From Liolophura sinensis (Eukaryota > Mollusca > Polyplacophora > Chitonida > Chitonidae): a stretch of 64,000 nt of DNA. Below, one piece after another: positions 4,293-57,812 of this stretch. The notes beneath the pieces were generated by a model that saw only the letters and a list, made by a program, of their open reading frames with translations, made no database searches and was not told where the DNA came from. The position numbers and the translations under genes are program-made. Position 1 is the stretch's first letter. Every line of letters starts with the position of its first letter. The stretch covers positions 5,703,991-5,767,990 of the forward strand of contig NC_088297.1 of the NCBI RefSeq assembly GCF_032854445.1, read 5' to 3'.

Positions 4293-4607
4293 TAGAGTGT
4301 TTTATGAGTGTTTCCATTGTGTACTACATCAACCCCAAGTTTCATTACCACCTGGAACAAAGCATGCTCATCAAGCCTTATTCCTGTGAAATTACATCGA
4401 ATTACTGCTTCTTGCCCACGTGGCATGTTCCTGGTACTTTAGTGTTTTTGCATCATATTACCACATAATTTATTTGTGTGAATACCTATTGAACGGTAGA
4501 ATCAGCTTGTACATGTATATCTGTACCTCTGATCAGAGCAGAGCGAGAACAGCTACTGTATGCAGAAAACTGCAGACGTTTTATTGTTTAATCTTATCCC
4601 TGTCTTC

Positions 4608-5540
4608 CACACCTGTCCTCATACTGGTCCTCCACACCTGTCCTCATACTGGTCCTCCACACCTGTCCTCATACTAATCCTCCACACCTGTCCTCATCCT
4701 GGTCCTCCACACCTGTCCTCATACTGATCCTCCACACCTGTCCTCATACTGATCCCCCACACCTGTCCTCACACCTGTCCTCCACACCTGTCCTCATACT
4801 GATCCTCCACACCTGTCCTCATACTGGTCCTCGACACCTGTCCTCATACTGGTCCTCCACACCTGTCCTCATACTGGTCCTCCACACCTGTCCTCATACT
4901 GATCCTCCACACCTGTCCTCATACTGGTCCTCCACACCTGTCCTCATCCTGGTCCTCCACACCTGTCCTCATACTGATCCTCCACACCTGTCCTCATACT
5001 GGTCCTCCACACCTGTCCTCATCCTGGTCCTCCACACCTGTCCTCATACTGATCCTCCACACCTGTCCTTTCACTGATCCTCCACACCTGTCCTCATACT
5101 GGTCCTCCACACCTGTCCTCATCCTGGTCCTCCACACCTGTCCTTTCACTGATCCTCCACACCTGTCCTCATACTGATCCTCCACACCTGTCCTCACACC
5201 TGTCCTCCACACCTGTCCTCATCCTTGTCCTCCACACTTGTCCTCATACTGGTCCTCCACACCTGTCCTCATACTGATCCTCCACACCTGTCCTCATACT
5301 GATCCTCAACACCTGTCCTCATACCTGTCCTCATACTGATCCTCAACACCTGTCCTCTACACCTGTCCTCCACACCTGTCCTCATACTAATCCTCCACAC
5401 CTGTCCTCATCCTTGTCCTCCACACCTGTCCTCATACTGATCCTCAACACCTGTCCTCCACACCTGTCCTCTACACCTGTCCTCAAACCTGTCCTCTACA
5501 CCTGTCCTCATACCTGTCCTCACATCTGTCCTCCGCACCA
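4608..5540. repeat. 25-bp minisatellite (RIM intron 3)
   Basis: About 35 copies built on CTCCACACCTGTCCTCATAC with T/C variants and a few deleted units. Confidence 0.95.
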
Positions 5541-5904: not shown

Positions 5905-7430
5905 AAAATCCGGTCAACCTAGGCCACTCTAACTAACGTGTACGTTTGCAGGACGCAGTTCTCCACGGAGATGCCTAGGCCACTCTAAGTAACGTGTACG
6001 TTTGCAGGACGCAGTTCTCCACTGAGATGCCTAGGCCACTCTAAGTAACGTGTACGTTTGCAGGACGCAGTTCTCCGCTGAGAGCCTAGGCCACTCTAAG
6101 TAATGTGTACGTTTACAGGACGCAGTTCTCCACTGAGATGCCTAGGTCACTCTAGATAACGTGTACGTTTGCAGGACACAGTTCTCCACGGCGATGCCTA
6201 GGCCACTCTAACTAACATGTATGTTTGCAGGACGCAGTTCTCCGCTGAGATGCCTAGGCCACTCTAAGTAACATGTACGTTTGCAGGATGCAGTTCTCCA
6301 TGGAGATGCCTAGATCACTCTAACTAACGTGTACGTTTGCAGGACGCAGTTCTCTGCTGAGGCGCCTAGGCCACTCTAGGTAACATGTACGTTTGCAGGA
6401 CGCAGTTCTCCACGGAGATGCATAGGCCACTCTATGTAACGTGTACGTTTGCAGGATGCAGTTCTCCACGGAGATGCATAGGCCATTCTATGTAACGTGT
6501 ACGTTTGCAGGACGCAGTTCTCCACGGAGATGCCTAGGCCACTCTAAGTAACGTGTTCGTTTGCAGGACGCAGTTCTCCACAGAGATGCCTAGGCCACTC
6601 TAAGTAACGTGTACGTTTGCAGGAAGCAGTTTTCTGCTGAGACGCCTAGGCCACTCTAACGTGTACGTTTGCAGGACGCAGTTCTCCGCGGAGATGCATA
6701 GGTCACTCTAGGTAACGTGTATGTTTGCAGGACACAGTTCTCCACGGAGATGCATAGGCCACTCTAAGTAACGTGTACGTTTGCAGGACGCAGTTCTCCA
6801 CGGAGATGCCTAGGCCACTCGAAGTAACGTGTACGTTTGCAGGACGCAGTTCTCCACGGAGATGCATAGGCCACTCTAAGTAACGTGTACGTTTGCATGA
6901 CGCAGTTCTCCACGGAGATGCCTAGGCCACTCTAAGTAACGTGTACGTTTGCAGGACGCAGTTCTCCACGGAGATGCCTAGGCCACTCTAAGTAACGTGT
7001 ACGTTTGCAGGACGCAGTTCTCCACTGAGATGCCTAGGCCACTCTAAGTAACGTGTACGTTTGCAGGACGCAGTTCTCCACGGAGATGCCTAGGCCACTC
7101 TAAGTAACGTGTACGATTGCAGGACGCAGTTCCCCACAGAGATGCCTAGGCCACTCTAAGTAACGTGTACGTTTGCAGGACGCAGTTCTCCACGGAGATG
7201 CCTAGGCCACTCTAAGTAACGTGTACGTTTGCAGGACGCAGTTCTCCACGGAGATGCCTAGGTCACTCTAGGTAACGTGTACGTTTGCAGGACGCAGTTC
7301 TCCACGGAGATGCCTAGGCCACTCTAAGTAACGTGTACGTTTGCAGGATGCAGTTCTCCACGGAGATGCCTAGGTCACTCTAACTAGCGTGTACGTTTGC
7401 AGGATGCAGTTCTCCACCGAGACACCTCCA
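5905..7430. repeat. 56-bp minisatellite (RIM intron 3)
   Basis: About 27 copies. Each contains CCTAGGCCACTCTAAGTAAC, GTACGTTTGCAGGACGCAG and CTCCACGGAGATG. The last is a small inverted repeat (CTCCACGGAG). Confidence 0.95.
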
Positions 7431-8527: not shown

Positions 8528-8743
8528 CTTGTTGCCACGTAATGAGATACGACCTCCACAGCGGGCACAAGATCGCAACAAGCAGTAATTGCACTTATGT
8601 CCCACACCGTCAGCAAACTTGGTTTTGCAGCAGATCTCACATACGGCTCCAGAGTCCCAGAGTCCGTCGTTGTTAGCTTCTTCGTCTCCTCCCCAAGTTT
8701 TTTCACCGACTGTTGATAGTTGTCGAATTCATCTTGCATTTGC
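8528..8743 (-). CDS. RIMS (RIM homologue): RIM gene, exon 3: second Rab-binding helix and RIM zinc finger, with an internal frameshift
   Basis: The acceptor is ...TTATTTTCAG|G and the donor is AAG|GTGAGAG. The phase-2 frame from exon 2 reads QMQDEFDNYQQSVKKLGEET and a further KK, matching the RIM helix that precedes the zinc finger. The finger itself is in another frame: CEICCKTKFADGVGHKCNYC, then CARCGGRISLRGNK. These supply three of the four CxxC pairs of the RIM finger, which contacts Munc13; the fourth (CNLC in vertebrate RIM) should lie in the next exon. The break coincides with a perfect 8-bp tandem duplication at 8649-8664. With one copy, the exon would be 208 nt, the two parts would be in one frame, and it would end in phase 0 after the Lys codon, as expected. 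As printed (216 nt), translation leaves the finger frame before its first Cys. This could be an assembly error, a polymorphism or a real lesion. Confidence 0.9.
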
Positions 8744-8759
8744 CTGAAAATAAAAAAGA

Positions 8760-8768
<9 letters not shown>

Positions 8769-8802
<34 letters not shown>
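8769..8802. repeat. (TA)n microsatellite next to the RIM exon 3 acceptor
   Basis: About 17 TA units lie about 25 bp upstream (minus strand) of the exon 3 splice acceptor, just before its pyrimidine tract. Confidence 0.9.
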
Positions 8803-8805
<3 letters not shown>

Positions 8806-9373
8806 CATTTATTACATTTATCTGATCAATGGTTCCTGGAGAGTATGACACTTGATATGTAACACAGCGTTTAGTTTTAAGGACGCAGGAAACCAGAGAG
8901 AAACCAGTGGAAACCACAGCACCCTGCCAGGCTTTCCAGGTACATAACAAAGGTCAAAATATCATTTTACCTGCGAACTTCATAAAGAGATCCATTCATT
9001 GGCCTTAAATAAGCTCCAAACAAGGGCTATATTGTTAATTTCCTTTAAATCCATATCTTTTTCATAACACAGAAAAACAAAGATGAAAGAAATTCCATAC
9101 AAATGACCCTATCTTTTCTGAGGACGCCAAAGAAAGAATTTGGTTTGGCCAATATAAAACTAATTCAGCTCCAGGCTGTGTTGTTCATTCCTGCTTTTGA
9201 GATGATGATCTGTGGACAATCTGGTAACGTAGTACTTCAGTATTACATGACATCATGGTCAATACAGCTTGGACCTGCAACTCCTGTGAACCGCAGTGAA
9301 GGTGGGCTTTTACTGATGTGTATCCACACACACTGTTACTGAAGATTCCTGTCTACAGCACAATTCATCTATT

Positions 9374-9618
9374 TATCATTTTATTTGATTGGTGTTTTAT
9401 GCCATACTCAAGAATATCTCATTCATACGACAGCAGCCAGCATAATGGAAACTAAGCAGAGAACGGGGGGAAACTCACAAGTATTTGCAGGTTGCTGGCA
9501 GACCTTCCCACGTACAAACAAAGAGGAAGGCAGCTACTCATAGAGGCCACAATGGTGGCAACCTCACAGGTCAGTGTGCTGCGCTAGCATGCTAACCTCT
9601 AGGCCACGGTAGCCACCC
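9374..9618 (-). mobile_element. tRNA-derived SINE, near full length, diverged (RIM intron 2)
   Basis: Minus orientation. The tail complement is at the low end (GATTGGTGTTTTATGCC) and the tRNA-like head (GCTAACCTCTAGGCCACGG) at the high end. It lies between RIM exons 2 and 3. The body has lost the usual GGGAGGAAACCGGG segment. Confidence 0.8.
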
Positions 9619-12964: not shown

Positions 12965-15900
12965 TACACCATCCTTCAAGAATCCTGATGTCATTGTACA
13001 AAACCTGCAGTGTAAAATTTCCAGCCAAGCTAATAGCTGGACCACAAGTCTGTTTTATTTCATGGGTCCTGATGTTATTGTACAAAGCCTACAGGTGTTA
13101 ACTTTGAAGCCAAGCTAATAGCTGGACCACAAGTCTGTTTTATTTCATGGGTCCTGATGTTATTGTACAAAGCCTGCAGGTGTTAACTTTGAAGCCAAGC
13201 TAATAGCTAGACCACAAGTCTGTTTTATTTCATGGGTCCTGATGTTATTGTACAAAGCCTGCAGTGTTAACTTTGAAGTCAAGCTAATAGCTGGACCATA
13301 AGTCTGTTTTATTTCATGGGTCCTGATGTTATTGTACAAAGCCTGCAGTGTTAAGTTTCAAGACAAGCTAATAGCTGGACCACAAGTCTGTTTTATTTCA
13401 TGGGTCCTGATGTTATTGTACAAAGCCTGCAGTGTTAACTTTCAAGCCAAGCTAATAGCTGCACCACAAGTCCGTTTTATTTCATAGGTCCTGATGTTAT
13501 TGTACAAAGCCTGCAGGTGTTAACTTTGAAGCCAAGCTAATAGCTGGACCACAAGTCTGTTTTATTTCATGGGTCCTGATGTTATTGTACAAAGCCTGCA
13601 GTGTTAACTTTGAAGCCAAGCTCATAGCTGGACCATAAGTCTGTTTTATTTCATGGGTCCTGATGTTATTGTACAAAGCCTGCAATGTTAAGTTTCAAGA
13701 CAAGCTAATAGCTGGACCACAAGTCTGTTTTATTTCATGGGTCCTGATGTTATTGTACAAAGCCTGCAGGTGTTAACTTTGAAGCCAAGCTAATAGCTGG
13801 ACCACAAGTCTGTTTTATTTCATGGGTCCTGATGTTATTGTACAAAGCCTACAGGTGTTAACTTTCAAGCCAAGCTAATAGCTAGACCACAAGTCTGTTT
13901 TATTTCATGGGTCCTGATGTTATTGTACAAAGCCTGCAGGTGTTAACTTTCAAGCCAAGCTAATAGCTGGACCACAAGTCTGTTTTATTTCATGGGTCCT
14001 GATGTTATTGTACAAAGCCTACAGGTGTTAACTTTGAAGTCAAGCTAATAGCTGGACCACAAGTCTGTTTTATTTCATGGGTCCTGATGTTATTGTACAA
14101 AGCCTGCAGGTGTTAACTTTGAAGCCAAGCTAATAGCTAGACCACAAGTCTGTTTTATTTCATGGGTCCTGATGTTATTGTACAAAGCCTGCAGTGTTAA
14201 CTTCCAAGCCAAGCTAATAGCTGGACCATAAGTCTGTTTTATTTCATGGGCCCTGATGTTATTGTACAAAGCCTGCAGGTGTTAACTTTCAAGCCAAGCT
14301 AATAGCTGGACCACAAGTCTGTTTTATTTCATGGGTCCTGATGTTATTGTACAAAGCCTGCAGTGTTAACTTTGAAGCCAAGCTAATAGCTGGACCATAA
14401 GTCTGTTTTATTTCATGGGTCCTGATGTTATTGTACAAAGCCTGCAATGTTAAGTTTCAAGACAAGCTAATAGCTGGACCACAAGTCTGTTTTATTTCAT
14501 GGGTCCTGATGTTATTGTACAAAGCCTGCAGGTGTTAACTTTGAAGCCAAGCTAATAGCTGGACCACAAGTCTGTTTTATTTCATGGGTCCTGATGTTAT
14601 TGTACAAAGCCTACAGGTGTTAACTTTGAAGCCAAGCTAATAGCTAGACCACAAGTCTGTTTTATTTCATGGGTCCTGATGTTATTGTACAAAGCCTGCA
14701 GGTGTTAACTTTCAAGCCAAGCTAATAGCTGGACCACAAGTCTGTTTTATTTCATGGGTCCTGATGTTATTGTACAAAGCCTACAGGTGTTAACTTTCAA
14801 GCCAAGCTAATAGCTGGACCACAAGTCTGTTTTATTTCATGGGTCCTGATGTTATTGTACAAAGCCTGCAGTGTTAACTTCCAAGCCAAGCTAATAGCTG
14901 GACCACAAGTCTGTTTTATTTCATGGGTCCTGATGTTACTGTACAAAGCCTGCAGTGTTAACTTCCAAGCCAAGCTAATAGCTGGACCATAAGTCTGTTT
15001 TATTTCATGGGTCCTGATGTTATTGTACAAAGCCTGCAGTGTTAACTTTCAAGCCAAGCTAATAGCTGGACCACAAGTCTGTTTTATTTCATGGGTCCTG
15101 ATGTTATTGTACAAAGCCTGCAGTGTTAACTTTCAAGCCAAGCTAATAGCTGGACCACAAGTCTGTTTTATTTCATGGGTCCTGATGTTATTGTACAAAG
15201 CCTGCAGTGTTAAGTTTCAAGCCAAGCTAATAGCTGGACCACAAGTCTGTTTTATTTCATGGGTCCTGATGTTACTGTACAAAGCCTGCAGTGTTAACTT
15301 TCAAGCCAAGCTAATAGCTGGACCACAAGTCTGTTTTATTTCATGGGTCTGATGTTACTGTACAAAGCCTGCAGTGTTAACTTCCAAGACAAGCTAATAG
15401 CTGGACCACAAGTCTGTTTTATTTCATGGGTCCTGATGTTACTGTACAAAGCCTGCAGTGTTAACTTTCAAGCCAAGCTAATAGCTGGACCACAAGTCTG
15501 TTTTATTTCATGGGTCCTGATGTTACTGTACAAAGCCTGCAGTGTTAACTTCCAAGACAAGCTAATAGCTGGACCACAAGTCTGTTTTATTTCATGGGTC
15601 CTGATGTTATTGTAAACAGTCTGCAGAGTTAACTTCCAAGCCAAGCTAATAGCTGGACCACAAGTCTGTTTTATTTCATGGGCCCTGATGTTATTGTACA
15701 AAGCCTGCAGTGTTAAGTTTCAAGCCAAGCTAATAGCTGGACCACAAGTCTGTTTTATTTCATGGGTCCTGATGTTACTGTACAAAGCCTGCAGTGTTAA
15801 CTTTCAAGCCAAGCTAATAGCTGGACCACAAGTCTGTTTTATTTCATGGGTCCTGATGTTACTGTACAAAGCCTGCAGTGTTAACTTCCAAGCCAAGCTA

Positions 15901-16187
15901 ATAGCTGGACCACAAGTCTGTTTTATTTCATGGGTCCTGATGTTATTGTACAAAGCCTGCAGTGTTAACTTTCAAGCCAAGCTAATAGCTGGACCACAAG
16001 TCTGTTTTATTTCATGGGTCCTGATGTTATTGTACAAAGCCTGCAGTGTTAAGTTTCAAGACAAGCTAATAGCTGGACCACAAGTCTGTTTTATTTCACG
16101 GGTCCTGATGTTACTGTACAAAGCCTGCAGAGTTAACTTCCAAGCCAAGCTAATAGCTGGACCACAAGTCTGTTTTATTTCGGATTC
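12965..16187. repeat. 84-bp minisatellite (RIM intron 1)
   Basis: About 38 copies. Landmarks are CCTGATGTTATTGTACAAAG, CAAGCCAAGCTAATAGCTGG and CAAGTCTGTTTTATTTCATG. The left half is rich in 85-bp variants (CAGGTGTTAAC); the right half is almost all 84 bp, which gives an open frame of 28 residues per unit. Confidence 0.95.
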
Positions 16188-28558: not shown

Positions 28559-28689
28559 CTTATCATTTCATTTTCCCGATCTTCCTCTTCCCTCTGTCTC
28601 CGTAATACATCCTCAATAATTTTCCTCTCTTCTTCGGTGAGATGACTTAGATCAGGCATTGGTGGTAGAGACGGGCGTCTGCCTGACAT
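28559..28689 (-). CDS. RIMS (RIM homologue): RIM gene, coding exon 1 (N-terminus, Rab3-binding helix)
   Basis: Read on the minus strand, the ATG at 28689-28687 opens a 43-codon exon beginning MSGRRPSLPPMPDLSHL and continuing LTEEERKIIEDVL, then an Arg/Glu-rich helix ending RENEMI. It stops at a consensus donor (AG|GTGAGC) in phase 2. DLSHLTEEER is the hallmark first helix of RIM proteins, the presynaptic active-zone scaffolds whose N-terminus binds GTP-Rab3 on synaptic vesicles. The start is the first ATG of the motif-bearing frame, and its position matches known RIM N-termini, where the helix begins within the first 20 or so residues. Rabphilin and Slp proteins share the Rab-binding helix, but the zinc finger in exon 3 points to RIM. 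The exon is hidden among longer opposite-strand ORFs. Sequence read directly; family assignment from established RIM motifs. Confidence 0.9.
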
Positions 28690-44268: not shown

Positions 44269-44529
44269 AGTCTGGGAGAGAGATAAACGTTAGGCCGACC
44301 CAGTACTTTTCCCGATGGGCTGGTTTGGTATATCCATGCACACAGCGGACAGATGCAGTTCTGAGAGGAGTTGCTCGCACATTCTGCAGTTCACTGTACA
44401 TGCAGCAGCTGACTCCAAATACTGTACTTACATTTATCAACTGACCGTAGCCTGACGAAATTAGTTTATGTAGGCTACATGTATAACGCTAATATAATAG
44501 TAATATTCGATGGTGGTCAATTTCATTAC

Positions 44530-44681
44530 TCGCCGCGAGTTCAAGTCCAGCTCTAGCTGGATTCCGCTCCGGCTGTACGTGGGGAGGTCTTTCAGCAATC
44601 TGCGGATGGTGGTGGATTTCCCCTGGGCTCTGCCCGTTTTCCTCCCACCATATGGATGGCCACCATAGTATAAGTGAAATA
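44530..44681 (+). mobile_element. SINE, 5' portion, split by the DNA transposon
   Basis: Plus-oriented SINE body from the B-box region (GAGTTCAAGTCCAGCTC) to GTATAAGTGAAATA. It is continued at 45616 after the 934-bp insertion, so the SINE is the older element. Confidence 0.85.
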
Positions 44682-45615
44682 AGTCAAACCTGTACCTACG
44701 GCCACCTGTAATCAGCGTCCATCTGCCGCAAGCGGCCACTTTCTCCCGCGACCAAACAATTTTGCATGTTAAACGACCTGTAATATGCGGGCATCTGTCC
44801 AATGCGTCCAGCGACCAAATTCTATATCACCCTGTCCTGAGCGGCCGAGACTTTCAAAAGTAATGATGATTGCCGCATCAGACATTTAAAAATTTCAAAA
44901 TGGCGACCACCCGACTACAATAGTTTTTGTAGTGATTAAAAGTTACAACCTGCCACTTTGTGATGACAAATGAAGTGTGAACATTATTGGTCAATAGCAG
45001 TGAAGTCTATTGTACTTTAATCAGGCCTAGCTGGTTATTGTCCGGACACCACTGCACTGTGGCAGTGGATTAGCTCCATGCTGAGGTCCGCGCTATGAAT
45101 GCCATAAACAGCGGGCAGACTCGGATATAATCGAATATAATCTGACCTCCCGTGGTTCCTCCCATGAATGGTTTCTTTGACAAATTATCTGGCTTGCTTG
45201 GCCATTATCTTTGCAGGCAAATGGTGCTGTGTTTTCATTTTGCGTGGCCAAAATATTGCCTGTACCGAACACATGGAGAAATTGATCTTCCTTCACTTGT
45301 ATATTTTGTTGTTGTTGTTTCACCGGTAATGGCAAATAAGATTGAACATCTCAGAAGTCTGCCGTTTACAGTCCAAAGCTTTGTTAGAATAGTCATTTAT
45401 AGCTACCTAGGCCAAACTAGCACATGGCTTTTTAGGGCTTGACAATGACGGGAATTATGTATAAGATTATTATGTAGGCCTACATGTGTAGATTTCCTGA
45501 AACTTAATTCAGTTGTGATTTGGTTTGGTCTTCACAACCTGTCTTATGTGGCCAACTGTCATATGCGGCCACTTTTTACGTGTCCCTTCACTGGCCGCAT
45601 ACAACAGGTTTGACT
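44682..45615. mobile_element. MITE-like DNA transposon inserted in a SINE
   Basis: This 934-bp element begins AGTCAAACCTGT and ends ACAGGTTTGACT, a perfect 12-bp inverted repeat. It is flanked by ATA (44679-44681 and 45616-45618). Removing it and one ATA restores the SINE tail GTGAAATATTCT. Subterminal repeats of the type GCGGCCAC(T) recur near both ends. The interior has no recognisable transposase; a 96-codon plus-strand ORF (45152-45442) and an 80-codon minus-strand ORF look incidental. It is probably a non-autonomous cut-and-paste element. The 3-bp duplication would fit a Harbinger-like enzyme, but the superfamily is not proved. Confidence 0.85.
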
Positions 45616-49870: not shown

Positions 49871-50144
49871 ATAGCCAGTGGCTCAGACGGTTAAAATGCT
49901 GGCTGGCTGTGGTTGCCAGGCCTTCAAACAGTGGTCAGTAAAGCACCAATCAAATCAGATCAGTGATTACAGTGAGTTGATTCTAATGGTTATTAGCATC
50001 AACTCACCATAATACTCATTACCTTTACCAAGAACAACTTAACGAGAAAAGTTATGCACGGATTTTGATGAGATTGTGCACAGCTTGACCCTCGGCACAA
50101 ATCCAAGCAGTTTGGTTGTGATGCAGATATATCTTTCAGCATGC

Positions 50145-50265
50145 ACATGGTCGGGGGTTTCCCCCGGGTTCTGCCCGGTTTCCCTTACCATAATGCTCGC
50201 CTCCGTCATAGGTGAAATATTCTTGAGTTTGGCATAAAATACCAATATAACAAATAAATAAAATC
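50145..50265 (+). mobile_element. SINE, 5'-truncated
   Basis: Body from CATGGTCGGGGGTTTCCCCC to ATTCTTGAGTTTGGC with an AAATAAATAAAA tail. Confidence 0.8.
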
Positions 50266-50494
50266 TGGGTCGTAAGTCTACGATTTTTTTTATTCGATTG
50301 ATCACCACTGGCAGATATTGAGAACAATTATGACGCCTAACAGAGTAATCTCCCTTCGACTGATTCACACAGTAATAAGCGTGAGGTTTACTTTAACGGA
50401 TACGGAAACGCGCAAGGGATATAGTTTTATAATATTTATTTTTTAGCCATCGAAAAACAGTGAATAAAAAAATTATTCTGCTGACGCGAGGGAA

Positions 50495-51000: not shown

Positions 51001-54000
51001 GACGTCCAGTTGTCTGTTTACAGTATAATGTACCTTGATGTCCAGTTGTATGACTGTAAAAAGAAAACTGAACATCCAGGTGGCCTACACTGTAAACAGA
51101 CAAGTGGACATCAAGGTGCCTTACACTGTAAACAGACAAGTGGACATCGAGGTGCCTTACACTGTAAACAGACAAGTGGACATCAAGGTGCCTTACACTG
51201 TGAACAGACAACTGGACATCAAGGTGTCTTACACTGTAAACATACAGATGGACATAACGTGCCTTACATTGTAAACATACAACTGGATACCAAGGCGCCT
51301 TACACTGTAAACACACAACTAGACATCAAGGTGTCTTACACTGTAAACATACAATTAGACATCAAGATGCCTTCCACTGCTAACATACAACTGGACATCG
51401 AGGTGCATTACATTTTAAACAGACAACTGGATACCAAGGTGCCTTACATTGTAAAAAAACAACTGGACATCAAGGTGCCTTATGCTGCAAAAACACAACT
51501 GGACATCAAGGTGTCTTACACTGTAAACATACAATTGGACATCGAGGTGCATTACATTGTAAACATACAACTGGACATCGAGGTGCCTTATATTGTAAAC
51601 ATACAACTGGACATCAAGGTGCCTTACACTGTAAACATACAACTGGACATCAAGGTGACTTACATTGTAAATAGATAATTGGACATCGAGGTGTCTTACA
51701 CTGTGAGCAGACAGCTGGACATCAAGGTGCCTTACACTGTCAAAAGAAAACTGGACATCAGGTTGCCTTACATTGTAAACACACAAGTGGACATCGAGGT
51801 GCCTTACACTGCAAACATACAACTGGACATCGAGGTGCCTTACACTGTAAACAGACAATTGGACATCAAGGTGCCTTATACTGTAAACATACAACTGGAC
51901 ATCGAGGTGCCTTACACTGTAAACATACAGCTTGATGCCATGCAACTGGACATCGAGGCGCCTTACATTGTAAACAGACAACTGGACATCAAGGTGCCTT
52001 AAACTGTAAACACACAAGTGGACATCAAGGTGCCTTACACTGCAATCATACAACTGGACATCGAGGTCCTTTACATTGTAAACATACAACTGGACATCAA
52101 GGTGCCTTACATTATAAACATATAACTGGACATCAAGGTGCCTTACACTTTATACAGACAACTAGACGTCAAGGTGCCTTACATAGCAAACATACAACTG
52201 GACATCGAGGTGCCTTACATTGTAAACAGACAACTGGATATCGAGGTGCCTTACATTGTAAACATACAACTGGACATCAAGGTGCCTTACACTGTGAACA
52301 TACAACTGGACATCAAGGTGCCTTACACTGTAAACAGACAACTGGGCATCATGGTGCCTTACACTGCAAACATACAACTGGACACCAATGTGTCTTACAC
52401 TGTAAACATACAACTTGACGTAAACAGACAACTGGACATCTAGGTGCAATACAGTGCAAATATGCAACTCGTCATCAAGGTGCCTTACACTGCAAACATA
52501 CAACTGGACATCAAGGTGTCTTACACTGTAAACATACAACTATACATCAAGATGCCTTACAGTGCAACCATACAACTGGACATCAAGGTGCCTTACATTG
52601 TTAACATACAACTGGACAATAATTTACCTTACACTGTAAACATACAACTGGACGTCAAGGTACCTTACACTGTAAAGAGACAATTGGACATTGAGGTGTT
52701 TTACACTGTGAGCAGACAGCTGGACATCAAGGTGCAATGCACTGTAAGTAGACAACTGGACATCGAGGTGCCTTACACTGCAACCCTACAACTGGACATC
52801 GAGGTGTGTTACATTGTAAACATACAACTGGACATCAAGGTGCCTTAAACTGTAAACATACAAGTGGACATCGAGGTGCCTTACACTGCAATCATACAAC
52901 TGGACATCGAGGTCCCTTACATTGTAAACATACAACTGGACATCAAGGTGCCTTACATTATAAACAAACAACTGGACATCAAGGTGCCTTACACTTTAAA
53001 CATACAACTAGACGTCAAGGTGCCTTACACAGCAAACATACAACTGGACATCGAGGTGCCTTACACTGTAAACAGACAACTGGACATCGAGGTGCCTTAC
53101 ACTGTAAACATAAAACTGGACATTGAGGTGCCCTACACTGCAACCATAAAACTGGACATCAAGGTGCATTACATTGTAAACATACAAGTGGACATCAAGG
53201 TGCCTTACACTGTCAACAGACAACTGGACATCGAGGTGCCTTACACTGTAAACATACAACTGGACATCGAGGTGCCTTACATTGTAAACATACAACTGGA
53301 CATCAAGGTGCCTTACACTGTGAACATACAACTGGACATCAAGGTGCCTTACACTGTAAACAGACAACTGGGCATCAAGGTGCCTTACACTGCAAACATA
53401 CAACTGGACACCAATGTGTCTTACACTGTGAACATACAACTTGACGTCAAGGTGTCTTACATTGTAAACATACAACTGGACATCGAGGTGGCTTACACTG
53501 TAAACATACAACTGGACATCGATGTATCTTACACTGTAAACAGACAGCTGGACATCAAGGTGCCTAACACTGTAAACAGACAACTGGACACCGAGGTGCC
53601 TTACATTGTGAACAGACAACTGGACATCAAGGTGCCTTACACTGTAAACAGACAACTGGACATCTAGGTGCAATACAGTGCAAATATGCAACTCGTCATC
53701 AAGGTGCCTTACACTGCAAACATACAACTGGACATCAAGGTGTCTTACACTGTAAACATACAACTGGACATCAAGGTGCCTTACAGTGCAACCATACAAC
53801 TGGACATCAAGGTGCCTTACATTGTAAACATACAACTGGACACTAATTTACCTTACACTGTAAACATACAACTGGACGTCAAGGTACCTTACACTGTAAA
53901 GAGACAATTGGACATTGAGGTGTCTTAAACTGTGAGCAGACAGCTGGACATCAAGGTGCAATGCACTGTAAGTAGACAACTGGACATCGAGGTGCCTTAC

Positions 54001-56045
54001 ACTGCAACCCTACAACTGGACATCGAGGCGCATTACATTGTAAACAGACAACTGGACATCAAGGTGCCTTACACTGTAAACATACAATTTTACACCAAGG
54101 TGCCTTACACTGCAAACATACAACTGGACATCGAGATGCCTTACACTGTCAACAGACAACTGGACATCAAGGTGCCTTAAACTGTAAACAGACAACTGGA
54201 CATCAAGGTGCCTTACATTGTAAACATACAACTGTCCACCAATGTACCTTACACTGTAAACATACAACTTGACGTCAAGGTGTCTTACATTGTAAATAGA
54301 TAATTGGACATCGAGGTGGCTTATACTGTGAGCAGACAGCTGGACATCAAGGTGCCTTACACTGTAAACAGACAACTGGACATCAAGATGCCTTACACTG
54401 TAAACAGACAACTGGACATCAAGATGCCTTACACTGTAAACATACAACTGGACATCAAGGTGCCTTACATTGTAAACATACAACTGGCCACCAATGTACC
54501 TTACACTGTAAACATACAACTTGACGTCAAGGTGTCTTACATTGTAAATAGATAATTGGACATCGAGGTGCCTTACACTGTGAGCAGACAGCTGGACATC
54601 AAGGTGCCTTACACTGTAAACAGACAACTGCACATCAATGTACCTTACACTGTAAACATACAACTGGACATCAAGGTGCCTTACACTGTAAACAGACAGC
54701 TGGACATCAAGGTGCCTTACACTGTAAACAGACAGCTGGACATCAAGGTGCCTTACATTGTAAATAGATAATTGGACATCGAGGTGGCTTACACTGTGAG
54801 CAGACAGCTGGACATCAAGGTGCCTTACACTGTAAACGGACAACTGGACATCAAGATGCCTTACACTGTAAACAGACACCTGGACATCAAGGTGCCTTAC
54901 ACTGTAAACAGACAACTGGACATCAAGGTGCCTTACATTGTAAACATACAACTGGCCACCAATGTACCTTACACTGTAAACATACAACTTGACGTCAAGG
55001 TGTCTTACATTGTAAATAGATAATTGGACATCGAGGTGGCTTACACTGTGAGCAGACAGCTGGACATCAAGGTGCCTTACACTGTAAACAGACAACTGGA
55101 CATCAAGATGCCTTACACTGTAAACAGACAACTGGACATCAAGGTGCCTTACACTGTAAACAGACAGCTGGACATCAAGGTGCCTTACACTGTAAACACA
55201 CAGCTGGACATCAAGGTGCCTTACACTGTAAACAGACAACTGGACATCAAGGTGCCTTACACTGTAAACAGACAACTGGACATCAAGGTGCCTTACACTG
55301 TAAACAGACAACTGGACATCAAGATGCCTTACACTGTAAACAGACAACTGGACATCAAGGTGCCTTACACTGTAAACAGACAGCTGGACATCAAGGTGCC
55401 TTACACTGTAAACAGACAGCTGGACATCAAGGTGCCTTACACTGTAAACAGACAGCTGGACATCAAGGTGCCTTACACTGTAAACAGACAACTGGACATC
55501 AAGGTGCCTTACACTGTAAACAGACAACTGGACATCAAGGTGCCTTACACTGTAAACAGACAACTGGACATCAAGATGCCTTACAGTGCATCCATACAAT
55601 TGGACATTCAGGAGCTTTACATTGTAAACAAACAACTGAACATCAAGGTGCCTTACACTGTAAACGGAGAACTAGACATCTAGGTGCAATACAGTGCAAA
55701 TATACAACTCGTCATCAAGGTGCCTTACACTGCAAACATACAACTGGACATCTAGGTACCTTATACTGTAAATATACAACTGGACATCAAGGTGTCTTAC
55801 ATTGTAAACATCCTAGTTGACATCAAGGTGCCTTACATTGTAAACATACAACTGGACATCAAGGTGCCTTACACTGCAAACATACAACTGCACATCAAGG
55901 TGCCTTACATTGTAAACATACAACTGGACATCAAGGTGCCTTACACTGCAAACATACAACTGGACATCGAGGTGCCTTACACTGCAAACATACAACTGGA
56001 AATCAAGGTGCCTTACACTGTAAACATACAACTGGACATCTAGGT
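51001..56045. repeat. 36-bp minisatellite, about 140 copies, open on both strands
   Basis: The unit contains CTGGACATCAAGGTGCCTTA and CACTGTAAACAGACAA. Periodicity is strictly 36, so variant blocks recur at exact multiples: 252 and 468 bp for the GGCCACCAATG block, 1224 bp for the GGTGCAATACAGTG block. A minus-strand frame of 541 codons and several plus-strand frames stay open across it. The first three units (about 51001-51060) run in opposite orientation to the rest. No signal peptide, splice context or non-repeat domain suggests a protein. Confidence 0.93.
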
Positions 56046-57460: not shown

Positions 57461-57462
57461 AG

Positions 57463-57546
57463 GGATTTGATTTGATTTGATTGGTGTTTTACGCCGTACT
57501 CAAGAATATTTCACTTATACGACAGCGGCTAGCATTATGGTGGGAT
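57463..57546 (-). repeat. Partial tandem copy of the SINE 3' end
   Basis: About 82 bp at the tail end of the SINE, from ATTTGATTTGATTTGATT to CAGCATTATGGTGGG, occur a second time directly beside the full copy. This could be a tandem duplication or an insertion into an older fragment. Confidence 0.85.
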
Positions 57547-57812
57547 TTGATTTGATTTGATTAGTGTTTTACGCCGTACTCAAGAATATTTCACTTATAC
57601 GACGGCGGCCAGCATTATGGTGGGTGGACACCGGGCAAAGCCCGGGGGAAACCCACGACCATCTGCAGGTTGCTGACAAACCTTCCCACGTACGGCCGGA
57701 GAGGAAGCCAGCATGAGCTGGACTTGAACTCACAGCGACCGCATTGGTGAGAGACTCCTCGGTCATTACACTGCGCTAGCGCACTAACCAACCGAGCCAC
57801 GGAGGCCCCCCT
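57547..57812 (-). mobile_element. tRNA-derived SINE, full length
   Basis: The best-preserved copy. On the minus strand it opens with GGGGGGCCTCCGTGGCTCGG (A box), has GTGAGTTCAAGTCCAGCTC (B box) and ends at GAATATTCTTGAGTACGG, GTAAAACACTAATC and an A/T tail. Length is about 265 bp. Confidence 0.92.

What the first reader, a model, noticed from the sequence alone, without database searches (positions are those of the whole stretch)
8649..8664. 8-bp tandem duplication frameshifts the RIM zinc finger
The helix and the finger in exon 3 are in different frames, and the switch lies exactly at a perfect duplicated octamer (CCAGAGTC twice, plus strand). With one copy, the frame runs through and the exon ends in phase 0. 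As given, the gene would lose its Munc13-binding finger and everything after it. It may be an assembly error, a segregating null allele, or a polymorphic duplication removed in most haplotypes.
Basis: seen in the sequence. Interest (0 to 1): 0.8.

Follow-up and report, generated by a model that had tools for sequence, protein, structure and literature searches.

The report
Eight-base duplication breaks chiton RIM gene
In the assembled genome of the chiton Liolophura japonica, eight bases of the synapse gene RIM are repeated back to back, throwing the zinc finger out of frame; most likely the sequenced wild animal carried an ordinary broken copy of the gene, and checking the public reads would settle whether it is that or an assembly slip.

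Summary
Window 8649-8664 holds CCAGAGTC twice, in a 216-nt RIM exon on the minus strand (8743-8528). The helix half reads in the frame that continues from coding exon 1; the finger half (Pfam RIM2a_ZnF) reads in another, and the switch falls at the octamer. As assembled, RIM ends after 130 codons. It is the second coding exon, not the third.

Contig lengths point to Liolophura japonica GCA_032854445.1: one wild animal, 14x PacBio HiFi, 1.24% heterozygosity. The exon occurs once in the assembly. RIM continues downstream; 13 of 15 matched exon places show no frame change. Three other conserved families (45.9 kb matched, by a different method) showed no such split.

My reading: the octamer is a genuine microduplication, probably a heterozygous loss-of-function allele that the collapsed assembly happened to keep; the extra G is more likely than not a consensus error. 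An assembly origin for both is the main rival. No splicing route that I enumerated rescues the finger. Ordinary biology or ordinary error; reads SRX20411988 would decide.

The parts
8649..8664 (.). Perfect tandem duplication of the octamer CCAGAGTC (period-8 run to 8665); shifts the reading frame by 8 nt
8528..8743 (-). RIM coding exon 2 (216 nt as assembled); acceptor TTTTCAG|G, donor AAG|GTGAGA
8656..8743 (-). Helix half: QMQDEFDNYQQSVKKLGEETKKLTTTDSG, in the frame that continues from exon 1
8528..8656 (-). Finger half: DSGAVCEICCKTKFADGVGHKCNYCLLRSCARCGGRISLRGNK, in a different frame; Pfam PF22601 RIM2a_ZnF
28559..28689 (-). RIM coding exon 1 from ATG: MSGRRPSLPPMPDLSHLTEEERKIIEDVLRRQREEEDRENEMI, exits in phase 2 at AAG|GTGAGC

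Best explanation
This is a genuine 8-bp microduplication in the only RIM gene found in the chiton Liolophura japonica, carried by the sequenced wild animal, most likely on one of its two chromosomes, and kept by chance when the assembler collapsed the haplotypes. Shown: the duplication, the frame change, the premature stop 43 nt into exon 3 (130 codons: 73 native, 57 foreign), no second copy of the exon in the assembly, and no frame change at 13 of the 15 exon places matched along the gene. Inferred: that the reads support it; that the other haplotype has one copy; that the message would be cleared by nonsense-mediated decay; that the allele is recessive and rare. The extra G in the five-G run before C2B is more likely than not a consensus error and not a second mutation; this too is inferred.
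For: The frame switch sits exactly at the duplication, and both copies encode DSG, each in its own frame. Exon 1 phase, finger frame and the exon 3 start agree with one copy being ancestral. Lengths of four of five contigs seen match GCA_032854445.1 exactly, made with HiFi at 14x, average read 8,347 bp, GenomeScope heterozygosity 1.24%, hifiasm plus purge_dups, HMW DNA from a single shore-collected individual, and a SMRTbell preparation whose text names no PCR step. In flies and primates about 80-90% of short insertions were attributed to simple or complex tandem duplication (PMC2374710, passages), so an exact 8-bp tandem has the form of a real insertion. No N in the 20 fetched 10-kb stretches that carry the rest of the gene or in the window. 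Exon 2 and the C2B exon each match only themselves in the assembly.
Against: No reads could be examined, and coverage is only about 7 reads per haplotype (my arithmetic). RIM has a second frameshift about 69 kb away. Two intra-exon frame splits in 3,813 nt of RIM matches, against none in 45,930 nt of three other families, hints at something local to this gene or stretch, which a single chance allele does not explain. Passages on HiFi errors name tandem repeats as well as homopolymers, so a tandem octamer is not wholly outside the error class; and a run of five Gs is short, while one paper speaks of long homopolymers, so calling the extra G an error is itself weak.
Confidence: 0.6

Rival explanations
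1. Consensus or assembly error: at 14x total, thin local coverage let a wrong read or mixed haplotypes into the contig at both places in RIM.
For: Low coverage and haplotype purging; a second lesion, a +1 in a G run, in the same gene; passages put the HiFi assembly indel errors that polishing removed mainly in tandem repeats and homopolymers.
Against: The octamer is mixed sequence; I know of no common HiFi error that doubles eight mixed bases (recalled). Three other families showed no frame split in 180 matches, 45,930 nt, though by a less comparable method.
Confidence: 0.27
2. Both frameshifts are real, on one haplotype or fixed: this haplotype, or the species, carries a degraded RIM.
For: Two lesions in one gene, none seen in the comparison families; a five-G run is short for a homopolymer error; the only other finger above the Pfam cut-off is a diverged one on another scaffold.
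Against: At the other 13 of 15 matched exon places RIM reads without a frame change and still aligns to the recalled human PDZ, C2A and C2B regions; an old pseudogene should show more decay. Unmatched stretches of the gene were not checked.
Confidence: 0.09
3. The exon is read correctly in spite of the duplication, by alternative splicing, an internal start or a programmed frameshift.
For: Six internal AGs would read the finger openly if joined to an upstream exon of a different phase.
Against: Of 7 internal acceptors joined to exon 1, six are out of frame for the finger and one is in frame but blocked by a stop; none of 16 enumerated GT/GC-AG exitrons restores the frame; the finger frame has a stop near the exon start and no ATG before the finger. 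The internal AGs lie in purine-rich sequence without clear pyrimidine tracts (by eye).
Confidence: 0.02

Closest known systems
RIM / RIMS1-2, UNC-10 (active-zone Rab3-interacting molecule)
   Same: Exon order helix, zinc finger, PDZ, C2A, C2B by tblastn with recalled human RIM2; KTKFADG..GH.C.YC...CARCGGR finger; Pfam PF22601 above cut-off
   Different: As assembled, truncated after 130 codons by the octamer; a second +1 G before C2B
Short tandem-duplication insertions (class described in PMC2374710, passages)
   Same: Exact tandem copy, short, one-base ambiguity at the junction
   Different: In a conserved exon, so expected to be strongly selected against (inference)
Finger on another scaffold of the same genome (CRLCYKNKFADGIGRVCQDCRRRVCGNC)
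   Same: Matches PF22601 at 37.2 bits, cut-off 27
   Different: Diverged; looks like a Fife/Piccolo-type finger (recalled, not tested), so not a spare RIM

Membership tests
RIM (alpha-type) | RIM zinc finger | tested here: met
   PF22601 3.5e-18; 2a20/2cjs RIM2 1.5e-14; best of 3 matches in the genome, 2 of them over the cut-off
RIM (alpha-type) | N-terminal Rab3-binding helix region before the finger | tested here: met
   Exon 1 MPDLSHLTEEERKII and QMQDEF..VKKLGEE match recalled human RIM2; Rab3 binding itself not tested
RIM (alpha-type) | PDZ, C2A and C2B downstream on the same strand | tested here: met
   17 tblastn pieces (E up to 1e-3) at 15 exon places over about 93 kb of C3, against recalled human RIM2; domain names recalled, no Pfam scan of these exons
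RIM (alpha-type) | One open reading frame through all domains as assembled | tested here: not met
   Frame change at the octamer and at the G run; this is the finding itself, not a reason to deny descent
Real tandem-duplication allele | Exact adjacent copy of the inserted sequence | tested here: met
Real tandem-duplication allele | Supported by reads or by other individuals | not testable with these tools
   Reads are public (SRX20411988, SRX21911526) but not held here

The most novel reading that the evidence does not exclude
Both lesions are real: this wild chiton carries, or the species has fixed, a RIM gene that cannot make the Munc13-binding finger and C2B in one protein, so its synapses run on a diverged paralogue or on split products of RIM.
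Probability: 0.04. Interest if true: 0.75.

Novelty: new member of a known kind. Interest (0 to 1): 0.2.

Why it matters
If it is a real allele, it is one more recessive loss-of-function variant frozen into a reference genome. It would make gene sets miss or truncate RIM in this chiton, and it offers a natural knock-out to follow in a wild mollusc. If it is an error, it shows how a 14x HiFi assembly with purged haplotypes can break a conserved gene twice. Either way, absence of RIM in an annotation of this species should not be read as biological loss.

Tried and rejected
Chance octamer unrelated to the shift: rejected, because the frames meet at it and DSG is encoded twice. Spare intact copy or haplotig in the assembly: none found; exon 2 and the C2B exon match only themselves, and the second PF22601 match above cut-off is a diverged finger. 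A third match, below cut-off and with stops inside, looks like chance. Splice or start-codon rescue from exon 1: rejected by enumeration. A 34-nt intron at the C2B lesion would restore the frame on paper, but it would be very short and would remove conserved residues (reasoned from the sequence, not run).

Comparison for frameshift rate: HSP70 49, Cpn60 50 and myosin head 81 matches, 45,930 nt in all, smallest same-strand gap 155 bp, so no frame split seen. Limits: the myosin search scored 65 of 213 candidates; five HSP70 matches are full-length copies on one scaffold, probably one cluster; a number of matches have stops inside, which I put down to introns read through and did not examine; RIM itself was read by tblastn with recalled human RIM2, and the profile search for the RIM finger did not by itself show the octamer lesion, because the helix lies outside the profile. 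So the profile method is less sensitive, and the contrast is a hint only. Kinesin, 132 matches (122 of 207 candidates scored), was read by eye and not summed; the one overlapping pair was fetched and is explained by introns.

No tRNA and no Rfam family at gathering threshold in the window. Literature: (chiton, genome, active zone, Rab3-interacting; at least 3 of 4) listed 8 of 79 papers, and those 8 show 0 occurrences of chiton. Searches (loss-of-function variants in wild invertebrates; genetic load in oysters) gave listings that I do not use. I make no claim that the lesion is unreported.

Full report
What is there. Window 8649-8664 reads CCAGAGTCCCAGAGTC on the plus strand, an exact tandem octamer whose period continues to 8665. 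It lies in an exon on the minus strand, 8743 to 8528, with acceptor TTTTCAG|G and donor AAG|GTGAGA, 216 nt long. Upstream of the octamer one frame reads QMQDEFDNYQQSVKKLGEETKKLTTTDSG. Downstream another frame reads DSGAVCEICCKTKFADGVGHKCNYCLLRSCARCGGRISLRGNK. The second matches Pfam RIM2a_ZnF with 65.7 bits against a cut-off of 27 and the solved RIM2 finger 2a20 at 1.5e-14.

The gene. Comparing recalled human RIM2 with the window finds coding exon 1 at 28689-28559, MSGRRPSLPPMPDLSHLTEEERKIIEDVLRRQREEEDRENEMI, leaving in phase 2. It joins exon 2 directly, in the helix frame. The window proved to be part of contig C3 of a held genome, and 200 kb below it were fetched. The rest of RIM follows on the same strand, to about C3:5,640,006: in all 17 tblastn pieces at 15 exon places, including the finger's second half (TIWACNLC) and what I recall as the PDZ, C2A and C2B regions. 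Thirteen of the 15 places show no frame change; stretches of the human query without a match were not checked. Exon 3 begins at C3:5,697,437, outside the window. Read as assembled, the shifted frame stops 43 nt into exon 3. The product is 130 codons, 73 native and 57 foreign, without the finger or anything after it. Loss of the message by nonsense-mediated decay is inference.

Which animal. G000 has 609,464,459 bases in 632 contigs. Contigs C1, C3, C7 and C12 are 96,433,062, 27,489,247, 60,359,117 and 31,077,156 bases. These equal scaffolds 1, 11, 3 and 8 of the Liolophura japonica assembly GCA_032854445.1, 609,495,693 bases in 632 scaffolds (PMC11068029: outline and abstract, passages, sections 6 and 7). 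I take these for small trims between versions; C3, which carries RIM, matches exactly. For that assembly HMW DNA was taken from a single individual of chitons collected at Kau Sai Chau, Hong Kong: 14x PacBio HiFi, average read 8,347 bp, hifiasm and purge_dups, with GenomeScope heterozygosity 1.24%. The parts I read name no later base-level polishing, but I did not read the whole methods text.

Is the octamer the lesion? Yes. The frames meet at it, both copies read DSG in their own frames, and exon 1 phase, finger frame and exon 3 start all fit a one-copy ancestor. Exact period-8 tandems occur 7 times in the window, 4 of them in one array, so the position is the telling part, not the mere presence.

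Can the cell read through it? Of 7 internal AGs joined to exon 1, six are out of frame for the finger and one is in frame but meets a stop. None of 16 enumerated GT/GC-AG pairs restores the frame. The finger frame has a stop near the exon start and no ATG before the finger. Six of the AGs would serve an upstream exon of another phase, but I know of none. I therefore give rescue about 2%.

A second lesion. In the exon before C2B, C3:5,643,301-5,643,305, a run of five Gs separates ...GPAQLVGRQVLG in one frame from GSPCLGEIQLGLYDRKGHLEVEV in another; recalled human RIM2 reads LVGRQTLATPAMGDIQVG straight through. That is a +1 in a homopolymer. Passages name homopolymers, and tandem repeats too, as places where HiFi errors gather (PMC7736813; PMC11429912), but one speaks of long homopolymers, and five bases is short. 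This second lesion counts against treating the octamer as an isolated event.

How unusual is that here? In three conserved families, HSP70, Cpn60 and myosin head, 180 profile matches covering 45,930 nt contain no two same-strand matches closer than 155 bp, so no intra-exon frame split was seen; the 3,813 nt of RIM matches contain two. I take it as a hint that RIM or its stretch is unusual, not as a rate. Kinesin, 132 matches, looked the same by eye, with one overlapping pair explained by introns.

Verdict. An exact 8-bp tandem in mixed sequence looks like a real insertion: 80-90% of short insertions in flies and primates were attributed to tandem duplication (PMC2374710, passages). A +1 G in a G run looks more like a consensus slip, though weakly. 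A wild animal with 1.24% heterozygosity may be expected to carry recessive loss-of-function alleles, and a collapsed assembly keeps one haplotype at random (inference). I put 0.60 on a real allele, most likely heterozygous, 0.27 on assembly error, 0.09 on both lesions being real and 0.02 on rescue. What would be lost is known from other animals: in C. elegans, binding of the RIM finger is held to release UNC-13L from an autoinhibitory C2A homodimer (PMC6389284, abstract), and the helix beside the finger binds Rab3 (PMC10169678, passages). Neither was tested in a chiton.

Noticed in passing
Outside the window: C3:5,643,301-5,643,305 (L008): Second RIM frameshift: run of five Gs before C2B, where the conserved frame needs one fewer; the exon matches only itself in the assembly.
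   Followed up: partly
window 4602-5539, 5918-7422, 12983-16181, 51053-56045 and others: Very many minisatellite arrays inside RIM introns and upstream of the first coding exon, units of about 18 to 108 bp in the larger ones, up to about 5 kb long.
   Followed up: no
L023 (C7:34,976,952-34,977,041): A diverged RIM-type finger on another scaffold, CRLCYKNKFADGIGRVCQDCRRRVCGNC; perhaps Fife/Piccolo-like (recalled).
   Followed up: partly
window 57462-57624; by eye also within 9343-9543, 44461-44826 and 50039-50392: Dispersed element with the core TTTACGCCGTACTCAAGAATATTTCACTTATACGACAGCGGCCAGCATTATGGT; looks like a molluscan SINE (recalled; likeness of the copies judged by eye).
   Followed up: no
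window 8747-8805: Poly-A run and (AT)19 microsatellite just intronic of the exon 2 acceptor, possibly length-variable.
   Followed up: no
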